From NCBI RefSeq assembly GCF_016841685.1, contig NZ_JAENYR010000044.1:1-32029 (forward strand): a stretch of 32,029 bases of DNA, written 5' to 3'. Below the pieces are notes generated by a model. The model worked only from the letters and a program-made list of their open reading frames with translations. It had not been told where the DNA came from and did not search any database. This document shows, piece by piece, positions 1 through 6,541 of the stretch. The position numbers were made by a program, and so were the translations under genes. The DNA is from Thiohalomonas denitrificans. GTDB lineage: Bacteria > Pseudomonadota > Gammaproteobacteria > Thiohalomonadales > Thiohalomonadaceae. Position 1 is the first letter of the stretch. Every line of letters begins with the position of its first letter.

Positions 1-192
1 GAAGGGAGCCAGGCCCTGAAGACCGCCTACCAGTTCCGCAAGCGGCTCCAGACCATCTGGCAGTCGGCCGCCGGCCCCGACCAGGTCCGCACCGCCCTGC
101 AGGAGTGGTGCCGACAGGCCGAGGCCACCGGCATCGAAGCGCTGCAACGCTTCGCCCGCCAGCTGGGCGGCTACCGCCTCAGGGACGCCTGA
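1..192 (+). CDS. C-terminal end of a probable acyl (delta-9) fatty-acid desaturase, truncated by the window edge
   Basis: Frame 1 is open from the first base to a TGA at 190-192 and gives 63 residues. The visible part is a helical tail rich in Q, R, A and W (LKTAYQFRKRL, then ALQEWCRQAEATGIEALQRF). It resembles the C-terminal extension of gammaproteobacterial DesA-type membrane desaturases, which carry this Trp/Cys-containing helical tail after the histidine-box membrane domain. None of the histidine boxes lies inside the window, so the assignment rests only on remembered similarity of the tail. GC-rich codon use fits the host. The alternative is another protein ending in a similar helical tail. 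Confidence 0.45.
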   Translation, partial: EGSQALKTAYQFRKRLQTIWQSAAGPDQVRTALQEWCRQAEATGIEALQRFARQLGGYRLRDA

Positions 193-338: not shown

Positions 339-683
339 TATCCCCCCTTGCGATTCCCACCCCTAACCGATAATGTCAGTCAAAACAGACGCCACCGGAA
401 CATCAGGCGTCGGAACGATGAATAGAACGGACATCGCCATGGAAGCCGCTCCCGGGGCCCGACATCAGATTATCTACTGCACCGGCCGGCCAATGCCGAC
501 CCGGCTGCCGCCGTCGCGCCCTCAAAGCCAAACCTTTCCTGTCCGTCCGCTCAGTACGCCGATTTCCTTCGCATACCCGCCAGCGCGACCACCGGCCTGC
601 CCACTAACACCGGAATACACCTCCGCTGGGTGCAAACTTCGGAATTGCTACCACAGAATTCTGCGGTTACACGGGTCGCCGCC
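339..683. other. Intergenic stretch without a supportable gene
   Basis: I see no convincing coding region here. One reading frame is open from 373 to 816, but its product is proline-rich and low-complexity, has no ribosome binding site before its ATG, and runs into the candidate attC at 684-837. No integron integrase or attI site could be recognised in this gap or on either strand to its left. Confidence 0.5.
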
Positions 684-837
684 GCATAACCGGCTACGCG
701 GTGAGCGACCGCCTATCCGTCCAAAGCAGATCGGTAGTATTCGGTGCAAATGGTTGGTTTGGCGAGGGAGTCCCACGGTGCCCGTGGTTAATTGCTTATG
801 GTTTAGGCGGCATTGAGCCGCCTACTTATAGTTATGC
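684..837 (+). other. Candidate integron attC site (upstream of the first cassette gene)
   Basis: GCATAAC at 684-690 and GTTATGC at 831-837 are perfect reverse complements and match the R'' and R' core boxes of attC sites. Next to them TACGCGG (695-701) and CCGCCTA (818-824) give partial L-box pairing with one mismatch. The CATTGAGCCGC segment at 811-821 resembles the bulge side of Vibrio-type attC sites. The length, about 154 bp, is long but within the published range. It ends 21 bases before the ATG of the first cassette gene, as expected. The central part pairs poorly by eye, so confidence is moderate. Confidence 0.5.
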
Positions 838-858: not shown

Positions 859-1818
859 ATGAATGAAGAAATGATGGAATTCGTTGAAAAGGAGCGCGCT
901 GAAAGAGAAAAAGAGCGGCTTGCGATGTATGAGGAATTAAACTTAAGAGAGAAAGAGCTCTCTAAGTATCGCGATAGGCTTCGAATGCAGGAGCGGGAGC
1001 TAGAAGACTATAAAGCTGATCTGAAGAAAGAGCAGTTAGAAAGAGAGCAAGCCTTCAGGCATGAGTTAGCTCAGCGCGATAAGCTCATTAAGGAGCGTGA
1101 GCAGGAGCTGTTTGCCAGACAAGCGAGGATGGAAGAACAGTTTCTTCATCGACAACAAGAAACAGAAAAACTACGCGATGAGCTTCAGAGTGAGTTGGCT
1201 CGGAAAGAGAAAGATCTAAACCTGCTTTTTGCAGAGGTCGAAAAGGAAAAAGAGAAGTATAGGGAAGATAGTCGGCAAGCTATCGAATCGAAGTCGCAAA
1301 AATTCGTAGATTCAGCCTTGAGTCTTCTTGAGCAAAAAGAATCGAAATTTCACAAAATTTCTAGGAACTGGTCAATAGTAGGCGCTTTATCAATTGTAAT
1401 TGGGGTGGTTTTTGCAATCTATACAATGATTTTTGGCGCAGACTCCTATTATCAAACAGGCAATACCGGCATTAGTTACTATCTATACACTCTGTTTAGA
1501 GGGTTAATCGTAGTCGGTCTGTTTGGTGCTTTGGCGCGCTACGCTTTTGTGCTGAGTAATTCTTTTATGCATGAGTCATTAAAAAGTGGTGAACGCTTGC
1601 ATGCTATTAAATTTGGGGAGTTCTATTTAGATGCATATGGAGCTGATGCTGAATGGGATCAATTGAAGGAAGCTTTTGAGCATTGGAATATTAGTGGAGA
1701 CAGTGCGTTTTCAAAAAAAGCAACCAATCAACTTGATAGCGAGTTAGATTTATCAGTTGCAAAAGCATTCGAGAAAGCTGTAAGTCAATTTGTTGAGACA
1801 CAGCCCAAAAAGGCATAA
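859..1818 (+). CDS. Cassette-encoded coiled-coil membrane protein of unknown function
   Basis: This encodes 319 residues. Residues about 1-160 are almost continuous charged heptads (E, K, R, Q and L, no proline), so a long coiled coil is likely. Two hydrophobic segments follow, at about 172-193 and 208-232, separated by a Tyr/Ser-rich loop, and then a roughly 85-residue C-terminal soluble part. The N-terminal coiled coil has no signal peptide, which suggests it faces the cytoplasm. The gene is visibly more AT-rich than the rest of the window (AAA, GAA and TTA codons), a sign of transfer. It starts 21 bases after one candidate attC, and its stop codon lies inside the next attC, the normal layout of an integron cassette. 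I do not recognise the family. Many cassette proteins of this kind are now being found in phage defence, but nothing here proves that role. Confidence 0.85.
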   Translation: MNEEMMEFVEKERAEREKERLAMYEELNLREKELSKYRDRLRMQERELEDYKADLKKEQLEREQAFRHELAQRDKLIKEREQELFARQARMEEQFLHRQQETEKLRDELQSELARKEKDLNLLFAEVEKEKEKYREDSRQAIESKSQKFVDSALSLLEQKESKFHKISRNWSIVGALSIVIGVVFAIYTMIFGADSYYQTGNTGISYYLYTLFRGLIVVGLFGALARYAFVLSNSFMHESLKSGERLHAIKFGEFYLDAYGADAEWDQLKEAFEHWNISGDSAFSKKATNQLDSELDLSVAKAFEKAVSQFVETQPKKA

Positions 1819-1895
1819 CAAGGGGCTCCAGTGGACGACAAAAAGCGTCGCTCGTTCCTCACTCTGCTTTTTGCTGCCACTGAGCTCGGCGTTAT
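1813..1895 (+). other. Integron attC site, right end split by a group II intron
   Basis: R'' GCATAAC (1813-1819) is followed by a five-base spacer and L'' GCTCCAGTGG (1825-1834). On the other side L' CCACTGAGC (1877-1885), with one base fewer than its partner, is followed by a five-base spacer and GTTAT (1891-1895). The inner stem CAAAAAGC / GCTTTTTG extends the palindrome. This is textbook attC architecture with an unpaired base in the L arm. The R' box should read GTTATGC. Only GTTAT is present before unrelated sequence begins, and the missing GC is found at 2654-2655 behind the intron. The stop codon of the cassette gene overlaps R''. Confidence 0.85.
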
Positions 1896-2653
1896 CGCGC
1901 CGGGATAAGCTCGGTGTATCTTGCAGGGTGAAAGTCCCTGTCGGATAAGGGTTAGCCACCCACTCGTATCGAGTGTTGATCTCAATGAGGAGCGGGTAAC
2001 CGCGAACGATAAGTGAGGTAAGCGTACACAGAGAATCCTGTAGGCCGTAGGGGAGACCGTGCTCCTTGAAGTGCTGGTACAGCTTCGAAATGCTCAATCC
2101 GGATGCCGAGGGTTTTAACGTGCACCGAAGGCAATACAGAGGCACCCGATTTGGCGAGGGTGTGGAGATCCGGCGGAGTCCTCAGGCCGTGGCATGCAGG
2201 AAGAGATACGTTAGAGAACCCGGGAAGCCCCATTGGGCTTCTGATCGAGGTGAGAAGATGAAGCCGTCAGAGTTGGGGCACATATCGGGTGACGAGCCCG
2301 GAAACGGTGTGGGCTCGGGTGGAATCCTGGAACAGGGAGCGGTCAGGTGGGCCAGAAGTGGCTATATGCCGGTGGGGTGTCTTATGGGGCATAGTAGTCG
2401 GAGGTTGGGAAAGCCAGCCACATGGCGAAGGACCCCACGGAAGTACGCAGCCCTCAAAGGAAACTCGTGCCGGACACAGTCGGATCGGAGAACACGAGCC
2501 AACCTCACTGAGGGGAATAGCAATTGGACCTTGAAACGGGTAACTGTGAAGGTCCGCGCGGAAGCGAGTGCAACTGAGGAACCCGATGCGGGAAAACTGC
2601 ACGTCCGGGTCTGTGCGGGGGGGCGCAGGGTAACCGGCGTTCCTACCGCGGAT
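1896..2653 (+). mobile_element. ORF-less group II intron (class C, attC-targeting type) inserted in attC
   Basis: About 758 bases carry group II intron features and no intact reading frame for the usual reverse transcriptase/maturase. Near the 5' end there is the stem CAGGG-TGAAAGT-CCCTG, typical of domain I, and then many short paired segments. Towards the 3' end come a 34-nt domain V-like hairpin and a domain VI with a CCTACC branch-point segment. The 3' boundary is placed at GGAT (2653) because the branch A at about 2645 is 7-8 bases away and group II introns end in AY. The 5' boundary is 1896 or 1897. Removing 1896-2653 joins GTTAT to GC and restores an attC R' box complementary to R''. 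Domain IV, where class C introns carry their roughly 1.3-kb gene, is reduced to a short link. Confidence 0.75.
2579..2653 (+). ncRNA. Group II intron domains V and VI
   Basis: Domain V is the hairpin GATGCGG-GAAA-ACTGCACGTC flanked by ACCCG / CGGGT (2579-2611). This is the catalytic hairpin with a GAAA-type loop and the usual two-base bulge on the 3' side. Domain VI follows (about 2613-2653), with a GC-rich stem and the branch adenosine at about 2645 in CCTACC. The catalytic-triad position reads ACC by my pairing rather than AGC or CGC. That could reflect my alignment or a real inactivating change. Confidence 0.65.
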
Positions 2654-2673
2654 GCGTAAAAGAGGAAAATAAC

Positions 2674-2940
2674 ATGGGTGCGATTTTTAAGATTCCAGGG
2701 TACATTGTCTATTTCGTTGCAGGATTATGGGGGTTCTTCATTTCTCTCGGCATAGTGGTCGATCATTTGGGTTTCATAGGTGGTGCTATCGCATTTTTTC
2801 TCGCACCAGTGACTTTGGCTTTTGCGCCATGGTACGAGGCAATAGCGAATTCAAATTGGTTTCCAATGTTGCTTGTGTACGGCGGCTTTATAGGTGCAAC
2901 AATACTTGTAACCATAGGATCAGCGATAGATGGTGAGTAA
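2674..2940 (+). CDS. Small two- or three-helix membrane protein of the second cassette
   Basis: This encodes 88 residues, largely hydrophobic, with predicted helices at about 8-27, 33-52 and 63-83 and the tail SAIDGE. A GAGGA ribosome binding site stands 7-11 bases before the ATG, immediately after the restored attC end, so this is the first gene of the cassette. It ends TAA, and the next gene starts within 4 bases. Codon use is more AT-rich than the chromosomal genes. No motif identifies a function, and the pairing with a second small membrane protein suggests a joint membrane role. Confidence 0.75.
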   Translation: MGAIFKIPGYIVYFVAGLWGFFISLGIVVDHLGFIGGAIAFFLAPVTLAFAPWYEAIANSNWFPMLLVYGGFIGATILVTIGSAIDGE

Positions 2941-2943
2941 GTC

Positions 2944-3357
2944 TTGAAAACGGCATTAGCAGTCATAGCAGCGTGTGTATTCATGCTGATAGGCTGGCTT
3001 ATACTGGCTGCGTTGCTTTATGGCGTAATGTATGTGGCTTCCCATGCGAGGGAAGGTGTTGGCCTGATGCATGTTCTAAACATTCTGCTTATGTGGGTTC
3101 TTGGCCCTGGGTTTGGGGGCTTCTTGGCTACTTACATAACGCCAAGGGTTTTTAAGACAATTGACGCCTCGACCATTGCCACAAGCTTCATCTCTGTCGT
3201 TGTAACGCTTACTATCGTATTGAGCTTATTGACCTTGATGCTCGCGCAACACGATGGCGCCGGGGTGGGCCAATTTATTCTGTTTGTTGTTCAGGTCGCT
3301 GCAATTATTGTCGGCGCCAAAATAGGCAAAAGCGTCTATGTCCCAAGCAACACATAA
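2944..3357 (+). CDS. Small four-helix membrane protein of the second cassette
   Basis: This encodes 137 residues with a TTG start and hydrophobic segments at about 5-28, 39-62, 76-100 and 107-128. GGTGAG, overlapping the stop of the preceding gene, is the likely ribosome binding site, so the two genes are translationally linked. The stop codon TAA lies inside the R''-like ACATAAC box of the following attC remnant, exactly as in the upstream cassette. I do not recognise the family. The start could also be the later in-frame ATG at the MLIGW position, but this would remove the first helix. Confidence 0.7.
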   Translation: MKTALAVIAACVFMLIGWLILAALLYGVMYVASHAREGVGLMHVLNILLMWVLGPGFGGFLATYITPRVFKTIDASTIATSFISVVVTLTIVLSLLTLMLAQHDGAGVGQFILFVVQVAAIIVGAKIGKSVYVPSNT

Positions 3358-4041: not shown

Positions 4042-4061
4042 ATGACCATTAATCTGGTCAT
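4042..4061. promoter_or_regulatory. Perfect palindrome, possible operator
   Basis: ATGACCA-TTAATC-TGGTCAT is a perfect 7-bp inverted repeat with a 6-base centre, 30 bases past the TATAAT at 4007. Its size and symmetry fit a dimeric regulator site, for example the autorepression site of a toxin-antitoxin pair. No regulator gene is adjacent. Confidence 0.35.
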
Positions 4062-4246
4062 TCCTGTCCGTTTGGGCTCTTCCAACGGCAGCCGGCGGTC
4101 GACGGGCGCCCCCACGGTGGTTTTTGGTCTCTGCCGGACCAACAACACAGCACAAGCGCCCGGTTTCGGGCAAAATCGCGTATCCCACTGACGGAGGACA
4201 CCCGTCAGGTGCGGTTTTCTGCGTTTCTCTGACACAGGTGGCGGTA

Positions 4247-6541
4247 GTGGCCCGGAAACAGAAAAAGAAGACTTCGAAAAAGAAAGGTGTATTGCGTCGA
4301 CTTGCCGAGAACCGGTGGTTCCATCTGGGCCTGTTGGCTGTTTTCCTGGTGGGGGCGGTATTCGTGGCCTGGCTCGATTACCGGGTCCGTGACCAGTTCG
4401 AGGGGCGCCGTTTCGCGCTGCCGGCCCGGGTCTACGCCCGCCCCCTGGAGCTGTTTCCCGGCGCCAGGGTGAGCGCCGATACGTTTATCAAAGAGCTGCA
4501 GCAGGTCGGCTATCGGGAGGGGCTGCGCGGCCAGCAGCCCGGGCGCTTCGAGCGCCGCGGTGACGACTTCCGGTTGGTCACCCGACCGCTCACGTTCTGG
4601 GACGGCCCCCAATCTTCGCTGTCGCTGCAGGTCTCCTTTGGCGACCATGGCGTGCGAGAGCTCTCCGGCGCCGCCGGGCCATTGAACCTGGTGCGGCTCG
4701 ATCCCGAGTACATCGGTGGCATATACCCGGCCCACAACGAAGATCGTGTGCTGGTGAGGCTGGATGGTGTGCCGAAGGCACTGGTCAATGCGCTGCTTGC
4801 GGTCGAGGACCGCAAATTCTATTTGCATCGGGGTATCGACCCGATGGGTATGACGCGGGCACTGGTGAGCACACTTTCGGGGAGAGGTGTGCAGGGGGGC
4901 AGTACCATCACCCAGCAGCTGGTGAAAAACTTTTTCCTGACCCCGGAGCGCACCCTGCGCCGAAAGTTCACCGAAGTGGTGATGGCCCTGCTGCTGGAGG
5001 CCCACTACGAGAAAAATGACATCCTCGAAACCTACATCAACGAGGTCTATCTGGGGCAGGATCGCAACCGTGCGATCCATGGCTTCGGGCTTGGAGCGCA
5101 ATTCTATTTTGGCGAGCAGCTCCGGAACCTGAGCCTCGCCGAGTCGGCGCTGCTGGTGGGGATGGTAAAGGGACCCTCCTGGTACGACCCCCATCGCCAA
5201 CCGGAACGAGCCTTGAAGCGACGCAATCTTACCCTGACGCTGATGCGCCAGCAGGGCTTTATTTCCGACGAGCAGTACCTGCAGGCCAGCGCCGCGCCGC
5301 TCGGCGTCATCGACAAGCCGGCCATGGGGACCACCCGCTATCCGGCCTTCCTGGATCTGGTGCGCCGACAGCTGTCCCGCGACTACCGCGACTCGGACCT
5401 GCAATCGGAAGGACTGCAGATCTTCACCACCCTCGATCCCCGGGTGCAGGCCGTGGCGGAACACGCGCTCACCAGCCGTCTCAACCGGCTGGACAGCAGT
5501 CCGGACCAGGGGCTGCAAGGGGCCGTGATCGTAACCGACACGCAGAACGGGGAGGTTCAGGCACTGGTGGGTGATCGTGATCCCCGTTTCCCCGGCTTCA
5601 ATCGGGCCCTGGACTCCAACCGGCCCGTCGGTTCGGTGCTGAAGCCGGCTATCTATCTGACGGCACTCTCCGACCCGTCCCGCTACACACTGGCCACATT
5701 GCTGGATGACGAGCCGTTGCTCTGGCAGGAGCCGGGACGCCCGGACTGGTCGCCCAACAACTATGATCACAAGAGTCACGGACAGGTCCCCCTCTGGCGA
5801 GCCCTGGCCCGCTCCTACAACATTGCCGCCGCCCGTCTCGGCTTCGATCTCGGCGTACCCAATGTGCTCGACACGGCCCGCAAGCTTGGCGTCGAGCGCG
5901 ATCTGCCGCCCTATGCTTCCACGCTGCTGGGCGCCGTGGCACTGTCGCCCCTTGAGGTTGCTCAGCTGTACCAGACCCTCTCCAGCGGCGGGTTCCGCGT
6001 CCCGCTACGGGCCATCCGTGAAGTATTGACCCCGGAAGGGAAGCCGCTGCAACGCTATCCACTGGCTGTAGAGCAGGTGGTCGATCCGGCGTCAGCCTAC
6101 CTGGTTACGGCGGCGCTGCAGACCGTGGTCGAGGAAGGGACGGCGCGCGGTCTGCGCAGCCAATTGCCTGAAGGGCTGTCGGTGGCAGGAAAGACCGGTA
6201 CTACTGATGATATGCGGGATTCCTGGTTCGCCGGCTATAGCGGGGATCGGGTCGCGGTGGTATGGAACGGTTTCGATGATAACCGTCCGACTTCGCTCAC
6301 TGGTGCCAGCGGTGCCATGAGGGTGTGGGGTGATTTGATGTCCGGTCTCGATGCCGAGCCGCTATCGCTGCCATTACCGGATACTATGGAGCTGGTCTGG
6401 ACCGAACCGGTTTCCGGACTGCGTGCCGACAGCGAGTGTCCCGGGGCGGTGGAACTGCCTTTTGTCCGTGGGTCAGCTCCCACCGAGCATGCCCCTTGTG
6501 CACGCTCCAGAGGCAACTGGTTCAAAAGACTTTTCCGCTGA
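4247..6541 (+). CDS. mrcB: Bifunctional penicillin-binding protein 1b (peptidoglycan glycosyltransferase/transpeptidase)
   Basis: This periplasmic, membrane-anchored enzyme polymerises lipid II and cross-links peptidoglycan. From the GTG at 4247 it has 764 residues, close to the family norm of about 770-840. A basic cytoplasmic tail (RKQKKKTSKKK) is followed by one transmembrane helix (about 23-43) and a UB2H-type region. The GT51 domain starts with the catalytic Glu in EDRKFYLHRG (E187) and contains GGSTITQQLVKN. The transpeptidase domain has SVLK (S463, K466), SYN (523-525) and KTGTT (K649). The frame stays open upstream to 4124, but AGGTGG lies 5 bases before the 4247 GTG and the basic tail is the usual N-terminus. 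GTG 4238 is an alternative. A TPR lipoprotein gene follows 79 bases later, possibly as a partner, in analogy to LpoB-type activators. Confidence 0.93.
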   Translation: MARKQKKKTSKKKGVLRRLAENRWFHLGLLAVFLVGAVFVAWLDYRVRDQFEGRRFALPARVYARPLELFPGARVSADTFIKELQQVGYREGLRGQQPGRFERRGDDFRLVTRPLTFWDGPQSSLSLQVSFGDHGVRELSGAAGPLNLVRLDPEYIGGIYPAHNEDRVLVRLDGVPKALVNALLAVEDRKFYLHRGIDPMGMTRALVSTLSGRGVQGGSTITQQLVKNFFLTPERTLRRKFTEVVMALLLEAHYEKNDILETYINEVYLGQDRNRAIHGFGLGAQFYFGEQLRNLSLAESALLVGMVKGPSWYDPHRQPERALKRRNLTLTLMRQQGFISDEQYLQASAAPLGVIDKPAMGTTRYPAFLDLVRRQLSRDYRDSDLQSEGLQIFTTLDPRVQAVAEHALTSRLNRLDSSPDQGLQGAVIVTDTQNGEVQALVGDRDPRFPGFNRALDSNRPVGSVLKPAIYLTALSDPSRYTLATLLDDEPLLWQEPGRPDWSPNNYDHKSHGQVPLWRALARSYNIAAARLGFDLGVPNVLDTARKLGVERDLPPYASTLLGAVALSPLEVAQLYQTLSSGGFRVPLRAIREVLTPEGKPLQRYPLAVEQVVDPASAYLVTAALQTVVEEGTARGLRSQLPEGLSVAGKTGTTDDMRDSWFAGYSGDRVAVVWNGFDDNRPTSLTGASGAMRVWGDLMSGLDAEPLSLPLPDTMELVWTEPVSGLRADSECPGAVELPFVRGSAPTEHAPCARSRGNWFKRLFR

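What the first reader, a model, noticed from the sequence alone, without database searches (positions are those of the whole stretch)
1890..2655. Group II intron lacking its maturase gene splits the R' box of an attC
Excision of 1896-2653 rejoins GTTAT and GC to a perfect R' complement of R'' (GCATAAC). Class C introns of the attC subtype are known to use attC as target, but they are usually reported in the opposite orientation to the cassette. Here the intron reads in the cassette direction and has entered the R' side, which carries the same GTTAT as the lower strand of R''. The domain IV gene is absent, so splicing or movement would need a reverse transcriptase supplied in trans. The domain V triad position also looks atypical.
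Basis: partly seen in the sequence, partly recalled or inferred. Interest (0 to 1): 0.75.

Follow-up and report, generated by a model that had tools for sequence, protein, structure and literature searches.

The report
Gene-less intron inside integron recombination site
A self-splicing (group II) intron that has lost its protein gene sits exactly inside the recombination site of an integron gene cassette, and it belongs to a family of introns, separate from the known integron-targeting one, that repeatedly enters these sites from the opposite strand.

Summary
It splits the R' box of a cassette attC in the cassette direction, and intronless attCs confirm the junction. Domains I-III and V-VI are there. 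The protein gene is replaced by a short hairpin, leaving a 29-codon remnant.

The class C reading is wrong. The RNA matches Rfam D1D4-6, not the models hit by three class 1 integron IIC-attC introns. The protein of its full-length relative in the same genome, also inside an attC R', falls in a fully supported clade away from IIC.

That family is attC-specific: 33 of 36 5' exons end in GTT (29 GTTA), 24 of 39 junctions sit on attC-like structures (p=7e-22), and at 18 the cassette gene ends at R''. So this is a second, non-IIC attC-targeting lineage, on the top strand, between GTTA and RRY.

One subclade, including the window, has triad AAC, U at the 5' end and a changed 3' end. Two 100% identical 2005-nt copies at different sites show that it moved recently. 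The window copy has probably decayed (unique C:C mismatch in domain V); trans-splicing is inferred. Closest prior art: Sonbol and Siam 2021.

The parts
1895..2652 (+). Group II intron, ORF-less (758 nt); 5' exon ...GTTA, 3' exon TGC...
1931..2188 (+). Domains I-III core (Rfam RF02005); invariant GAAC in the DI loop is the candidate EBS1
2189..2570 (+). Domain IV without reverse-transcriptase gene
2422..2511 (+). Remnant of the first codons of the intron protein, MAKDPTEVRSPQRKLVPDTVGSENTSQPH*; the DIV stretch that other ORF-less copies also keep
2526..2555 (+). Hairpin replacing the ORF (GGACCTT...AAGGTCC), shared with an ORF-less intron of another family of bacteria (L115)
2578..2611 (+). Domain V, triad AAC, with a C:C mismatch found in no relative
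2612..2652 (+). Domain VI with bulged A in CCTAC; extra G and an A:G mismatch in this copy
1816..1822 (+). attC R'' box GCATAAC, overlapping the stop codon of the cassette gene
1816..1894 (+). attC from R'' to the first half of R' (GTTA); R' resumes at 2653-2655 (TGC)
2653..2655 (+). Second half of the R' box (TGC)
859..1818 (+). Cassette 1 ORF, 319 aa, no NCBIfam or Pfam match
2674..3357 (+). Cassette 2 ORFs (2674-2940, 2944-3357), no family match
684..837 (+). attC-like site before cassette 1 (GCATAAC...GTTATGC)
362..604 (+). Sequence homologous to the intI end and its downstream flank on contig C12; the rest of intI is missing here

Best explanation
This is a gene-less member of an attC-specific group II intron lineage that is not group IIC. 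Shown: the intron, its exact place in R' in cassette direction, the lineage's repeated use of that site, and the loss of the protein gene. Inferred: the RNA, with a protein supplied by a full-length relative, reverse-spliced into the top strand of attC after the hairpin and GTT(A), directed by a short EBS1 (GAAC) instead of a long homing site. Because recombination cuts R' before its first TT, the intron lies at the front of the next cassette, so transcripts that run through the array could have it spliced out between the two cassette genes, and the DNA attC keeps its GTT core. The copy in the window probably splices poorly or not at all now, because domain V and VI pairs are broken and the nearest protein gene in the genome is frameshifted.
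For: RNA: (26 pairs, 14 with changes on both sides, 0 of 500 shuffles). Full-length relative in R' of another attC of the same genome. Not IIC. Target: 33 of 36 5' exons end in GTT; 24 of 39 junctions attC-like at p<0.05 against composition-preserving shuffles, binomial 7e-22; cassette gene ending -18 to +13 nt from R'' at 18 sites. Intronless attCs. ORF replaced by the same hairpin in a bacterium of another family at another attC-like site. ORF-less intron inserted between GTTA and an older intron in G236. Recent mobility of the subclade: two identical 2005-nt copies with unrelated 3' flanks. Trans-mobilised ORF-less introns have precedent in T. elongatus (PMC2882425).
Against: No splicing or mobility was tested. 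The protein of the C12 relative has a C-terminal frameshift, so a matching active protein in this genome is not shown. A few family copies are not at GTT sites (L050, L101, L125). The EBS1 assignment leaves the last exon base unpaired. Many relatives are 3'-truncated fragments, so much of the family is decayed. The ORF-less copies could also have spread by cassette exchange or recombination instead of retrohoming.
Confidence: 0.8

Rival explanations
1. A group IIC-attC intron in unusual orientation, as in the Enterobacter cloacae case cited in PMC7923331.
For: It is in an attC, in a family whose protein lacks an endonuclease domain, with a short exon-binding motif; the E. cloacae precedent has the same orientation.
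Against: Three IIC-attC references hit RF02001/RF01998 and insert after TTTGT on the other strand, with the intron opposite to the cassettes. The window lineage hits RF02005, its proteins form another clade, and it has neither the CGC triad nor the IIC site.
Confidence: 0.03
2. A dead remnant: the intron inserted full-length, lost its ORF in place, and neither splices nor moves.
For: Unique C:C mismatch in domain V, A:G mismatch and extra G in domain VI; sub-gathering RF00029 score; frameshifted C12 protein; intI remnant only.
Against: The ORF-for-hairpin replacement is shared with L115 in another bacterial family, so the ORF was probably not lost at this site. On splicing, this rival differs from the best explanation only in whether any activity remains.
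Confidence: 0.4
3. The intron reached this place as the front part of cassette 2, moved by the integron integrase, not by reverse splicing into this attC.
For: IntI cuts before TT in R' (established knowledge of integrons), so the intron would travel with the downstream cassette; the same intron 3' remnant precedes the same gene in two contigs, C56 and C123.
Against: The joined R' GTTATGC is the exact complement of this cassette's own R'', but R' bases after the cut come with cassette 2 in either case, so this is weak. The 758-bp repeat in C56 and C123 does not end at attC borders.
Confidence: 0.15

Closest known systems
Group IIB introns (IEP classes E and CL1) in integrons and CALINs: H.ha.F1, H.ha.F2, UHB.I2 (Sonbol and Siam 2021, PMC7923331)
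   Same: Non-IIC group II introns next to attC; H. halochloris is also a gammaproteobacterium; UHB.I2 is in cassette direction; attC-like structures were noted upstream.
   Different: H.ha.F1 and F2 are 5'-truncated, so their target junction was not seen; UHB.I2 has another class of protein. No lineage with a fixed R' site, no ORF-less copies and no altered triad were described.
Group IIC-attC introns (S.ma.I2, Kl.pn.I3 type)
   Same: attC as target, stem-loop plus short IBS1.
   Different: IIC RNA and protein, bottom strand at R'' after TTGT, opposite to cassettes; CGC triad.
E. cloacae group IIC intron in the top strand of attC (cited in PMC7923331)
   Same: Same orientation and strand.
   Different: A IIC intron; one reported case.
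ORF-less TeI3 introns of Thermosynechococcus elongatus (PMC2882425)
   Same: ORF deleted from DIV with remnants kept; spread with a protein acting in trans.
   Different: Another class, homing sites, no attC.

Membership tests
Group II intron | Domain I-III fold | tested here: met
   RF02005 105.9 bits
Group II intron | Domain V-VI with bulged branch A | tested here: met
   score reduced in this copy
Group II intron | AGC (or CGC) triad in domain V (usual, highly conserved) | tested here: not met
   AAC in this copy and in 11 other D5s of its subclade; AGC in 8 sister D5s. The fold and the recent mobility of the subclade still make it a group II intron
Group II intron | 5' GUGYG and 3' AY ends (usual consensus) | tested here: not met
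   UCGCG...GGA in the window subclade; GNGCG...GAC in sisters, some with exact GTGCG
Group II intron | Splices in vivo or in vitro | not testable with these tools
   needs RNA
Group IIC-attC | IIC RNA (RF02001 type) | tested here: not met
Group IIC-attC | IIC protein clade | tested here: not met
   for the C12 relative; the window copy has no protein
Group IIC-attC | Insertion in R'' on the bottom strand, opposite to cassettes | tested here: not met
Group IIC-attC | attC as target | tested here: met
Bacterial class E (IIB) intron | IEP groups with class E references | not tested
   No labelled class E sequence could be loaded; class E-like is inferred from PMC7923331 and from the exclusion of IIC
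ORF-less group II intron | No protein gene in DIV | tested here: met
ORF-less group II intron | Related intron with a protein gene in the same genome | tested here: met
   C12 copy; its gene is frameshifted near the C terminus

The most novel reading that the evidence does not exclude
The window's subclade is a naturally active group II lineage whose catalytic triad has changed from AGC to AAC together with the first intron base (G to U) and the 3' end (AC to GA), that is, three positions at the active site changed as a set, while the introns kept jumping into attC sites.
Probability: 0.45. Interest if true: 0.85.

Novelty: new variant of a known kind. Interest (0 to 1): 0.63.

Why it matters
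attC targeting was tied to one group of introns (IIC), with one report of other classes in halophile arrays; PMC4424553 states that all lineages but class C use homing sites. A second lineage with a fixed attC site on the other strand suggests that attC hairpins recruited group II introns more than once, and in an orientation where splicing can leave cassette transcripts intact. The AAC subclade gives a natural test of how far the group II (and spliceosomal U6) AGC triad can change if its partners change too.

Tried and rejected
IIC membership was tested against three IIC-attC loci and rejected. A first attC test with control sites from the same arrays was unusable because many controls were attCs themselves; a second with neutral controls gave Mann-Whitney p=8e-10; a third with shuffles is the one reported. 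Viral contigs gave no protein relative and one 5' end. Searches of other orders and of 398 genomes of the phylum (two genomes only) added little. IMP-4 plasmid accessions were not held. The idea that GTTA is intron sequence and not target was rejected: intronless attCs carry the same GTTAT, and in attC-borne copies GTTA pairs with the attC's own R''.

Full report
What was checked. The window carries a group II intron inside an integron cassette array. Domains I-III match RF02005 at 105.9 bits and domains V-VI match RF00029 at 32.6 bits, below gathering, ending at 2653. A model built from relatives finds V-VI at 2571-2652 with 90.4 bits. The V-VI structure is backed by covariation: 26 pairs, 14 with changes on both sides, none of 500 shuffles as good (the alignment is fitted to the structure, but the slid controls are far lower).

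Where it sits. Cassette 1 (ORF 859-1818) ends on R'' GCATAAC. R' is GTTA, then the intron, then TGC. Joined, R' is GTTATGC, the exact complement of R'', and the joined site folds as an attC hairpin. An uninterrupted attC in the same genome and one in genome G008 read GTTATGC and GTTATGT at this place. Aligned relatives put the border between GTTA and the intron, with the 3' end 10 or 11 bases after the start of CTAC. In G236 two introns stand head to tail, and that junction fits the same border. The intron is therefore 1895-2652.

Its family. The same genome has a full-length relative on contig C12 (86% identical in domains I-III), also after GTTA of an attC R' in cassette direction, in an array whose intI is a pseudogene. 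Its protein (422 aa, then a frameshift) falls in a 100%-supported clade with proteins from Chromatiaceae, Granulosicoccus, Cellvibrionaceae and others, apart from the 100%-supported IIC clade that holds GsI-IIC, another solved IIC protein (7uim) and three IIC-attC introns of class 1 integrons. Those three hit RF02001 and RF01998, never RF02005, stand opposite to their cassettes, and the two whose 5' end was read follow TTTGT. The window intron is thus not IIC. Class E is likely, from the report on H. halochloris, but no labelled reference was available.

The family's target. A 5'-end model found 36 matches in 20 of 369 gammaproteobacterial genomes. With the earlier loci, 33 of 36 5' exons end in GTT, 29 in GTTA. 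Against dinucleotide shuffles, 24 of 39 junctions follow an attC-like pairing of an AAC box and arm with the bases before the intron (p<0.05 each; binomial p=7e-22; copies are not all independent). attC is nearly a palindrome, so the strand was settled by genes: at 18 sites a same-strand ORF ends -18 to +13 nt from R''. One further 5' end with an attC came from a viral-contig collection. A GAAC in the domain I loop is present in every copy of the family whose loop could be read, apart from one weak match at a contig edge (L102), and can pair with GTT; that it is EBS1 is inference.

Loss of the gene. In domain IV 29 codons of the protein's N terminus remain, then a hairpin GGACCTT...AAGGTCC stands where the ORF was. 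The same hairpin is in L115, an ORF-less intron of G264, a bacterium of another family, at another attC-like site and before another gene. L115 is otherwise 97% identical to the full-length introns of its own genome, which suggests recombination. An ORF-less intron in G236 lies between GTTA and an older intron, so it arrived later; this rests on a 4-kb draft contig. ORF-less introns driven by a protein in trans are known from T. elongatus.

The triad. Twelve V domains of the window's subclade have AAC, eight sisters AGC. Wherever both ends are known, AAC goes with U as first base (10 of 10) and AGC with G (5 of 5), and the 3' ends differ accordingly (GA against AC or AT, where intact). These are not independent events; one change on one branch would give the same table. 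Two copies in G264, 100% identical over 2005 nt with unrelated 3' flanks and an open 578-aa frame, show that such introns moved recently, and mobility needs splicing. PMC4424553 gives AGC or CGC as the triad.

State of the window copy. Its domain V has a C:C mismatch found in no relative, domain VI an A:G mismatch and an extra G. The only close protein gene in the genome is frameshifted; two other group II proteins of the genome are distant. I think it likelier than not that this copy splices poorly. The intI of this array is reduced to a remnant.

Compared with the literature. [quoted passage not shown] Not found in the papers searched: a non-IIC lineage with a fixed R' site, ORF-less members of it, or an AAC triad. 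The library holds open-licence papers only.

Noticed in passing
L040:1285-3289 and L041:1301-3305 (genome G264): Two 100% identical full-length introns (2005 nt) at different sites with 86% similar 5' flanks and unrelated 3' flanks; open 578-aa frame.
   Followed up: yes
L131:2860-3987 (genome G236, contig C81): Two introns in direct tandem, the upstream one ORF-less and placed between GTTA of an attC and the first base of the other.
   Followed up: partly
L009:2994-3074, L010:4717-4797, L011:1363-1439: Three 5'-truncated domain V-VI remnants of the AGC type in the window's genome; two precede the same gene inside a 758-bp repeat at 97% identity.
   Followed up: partly
L115:536-2206: An insertion sequence, by its transposase of ISKra4 type (from memory), interrupts the ORF-less intron of G264.
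   Followed up: no
L113, L116-L118, L120-L122, L124-L127: Many family members are 3'-truncated pieces that keep the 5' junction, mostly in attC; the opposite of the 5' truncation expected from incomplete reverse transcription.
   Followed up: partly
L033:2990-3401 and 4058-5153: Two copies of the intron on a plasmid of Candidatus Thiodictyon syntrophicum, both after hairpin-rich sequence ending in GTTA (attC-like for the second); the first is internally deleted, the second has a broken gene.
   Followed up: partly
window 1-192: C-terminal piece of an ISL3-type transposase (PF01610) at the edge of the window, before the intI remnant.
   Followed up: partly
L136 (IMG/VR contig, 1289-1322 minus): A 5' end of this intron family in an attC on a contig filed as viral.
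   Followed up: no
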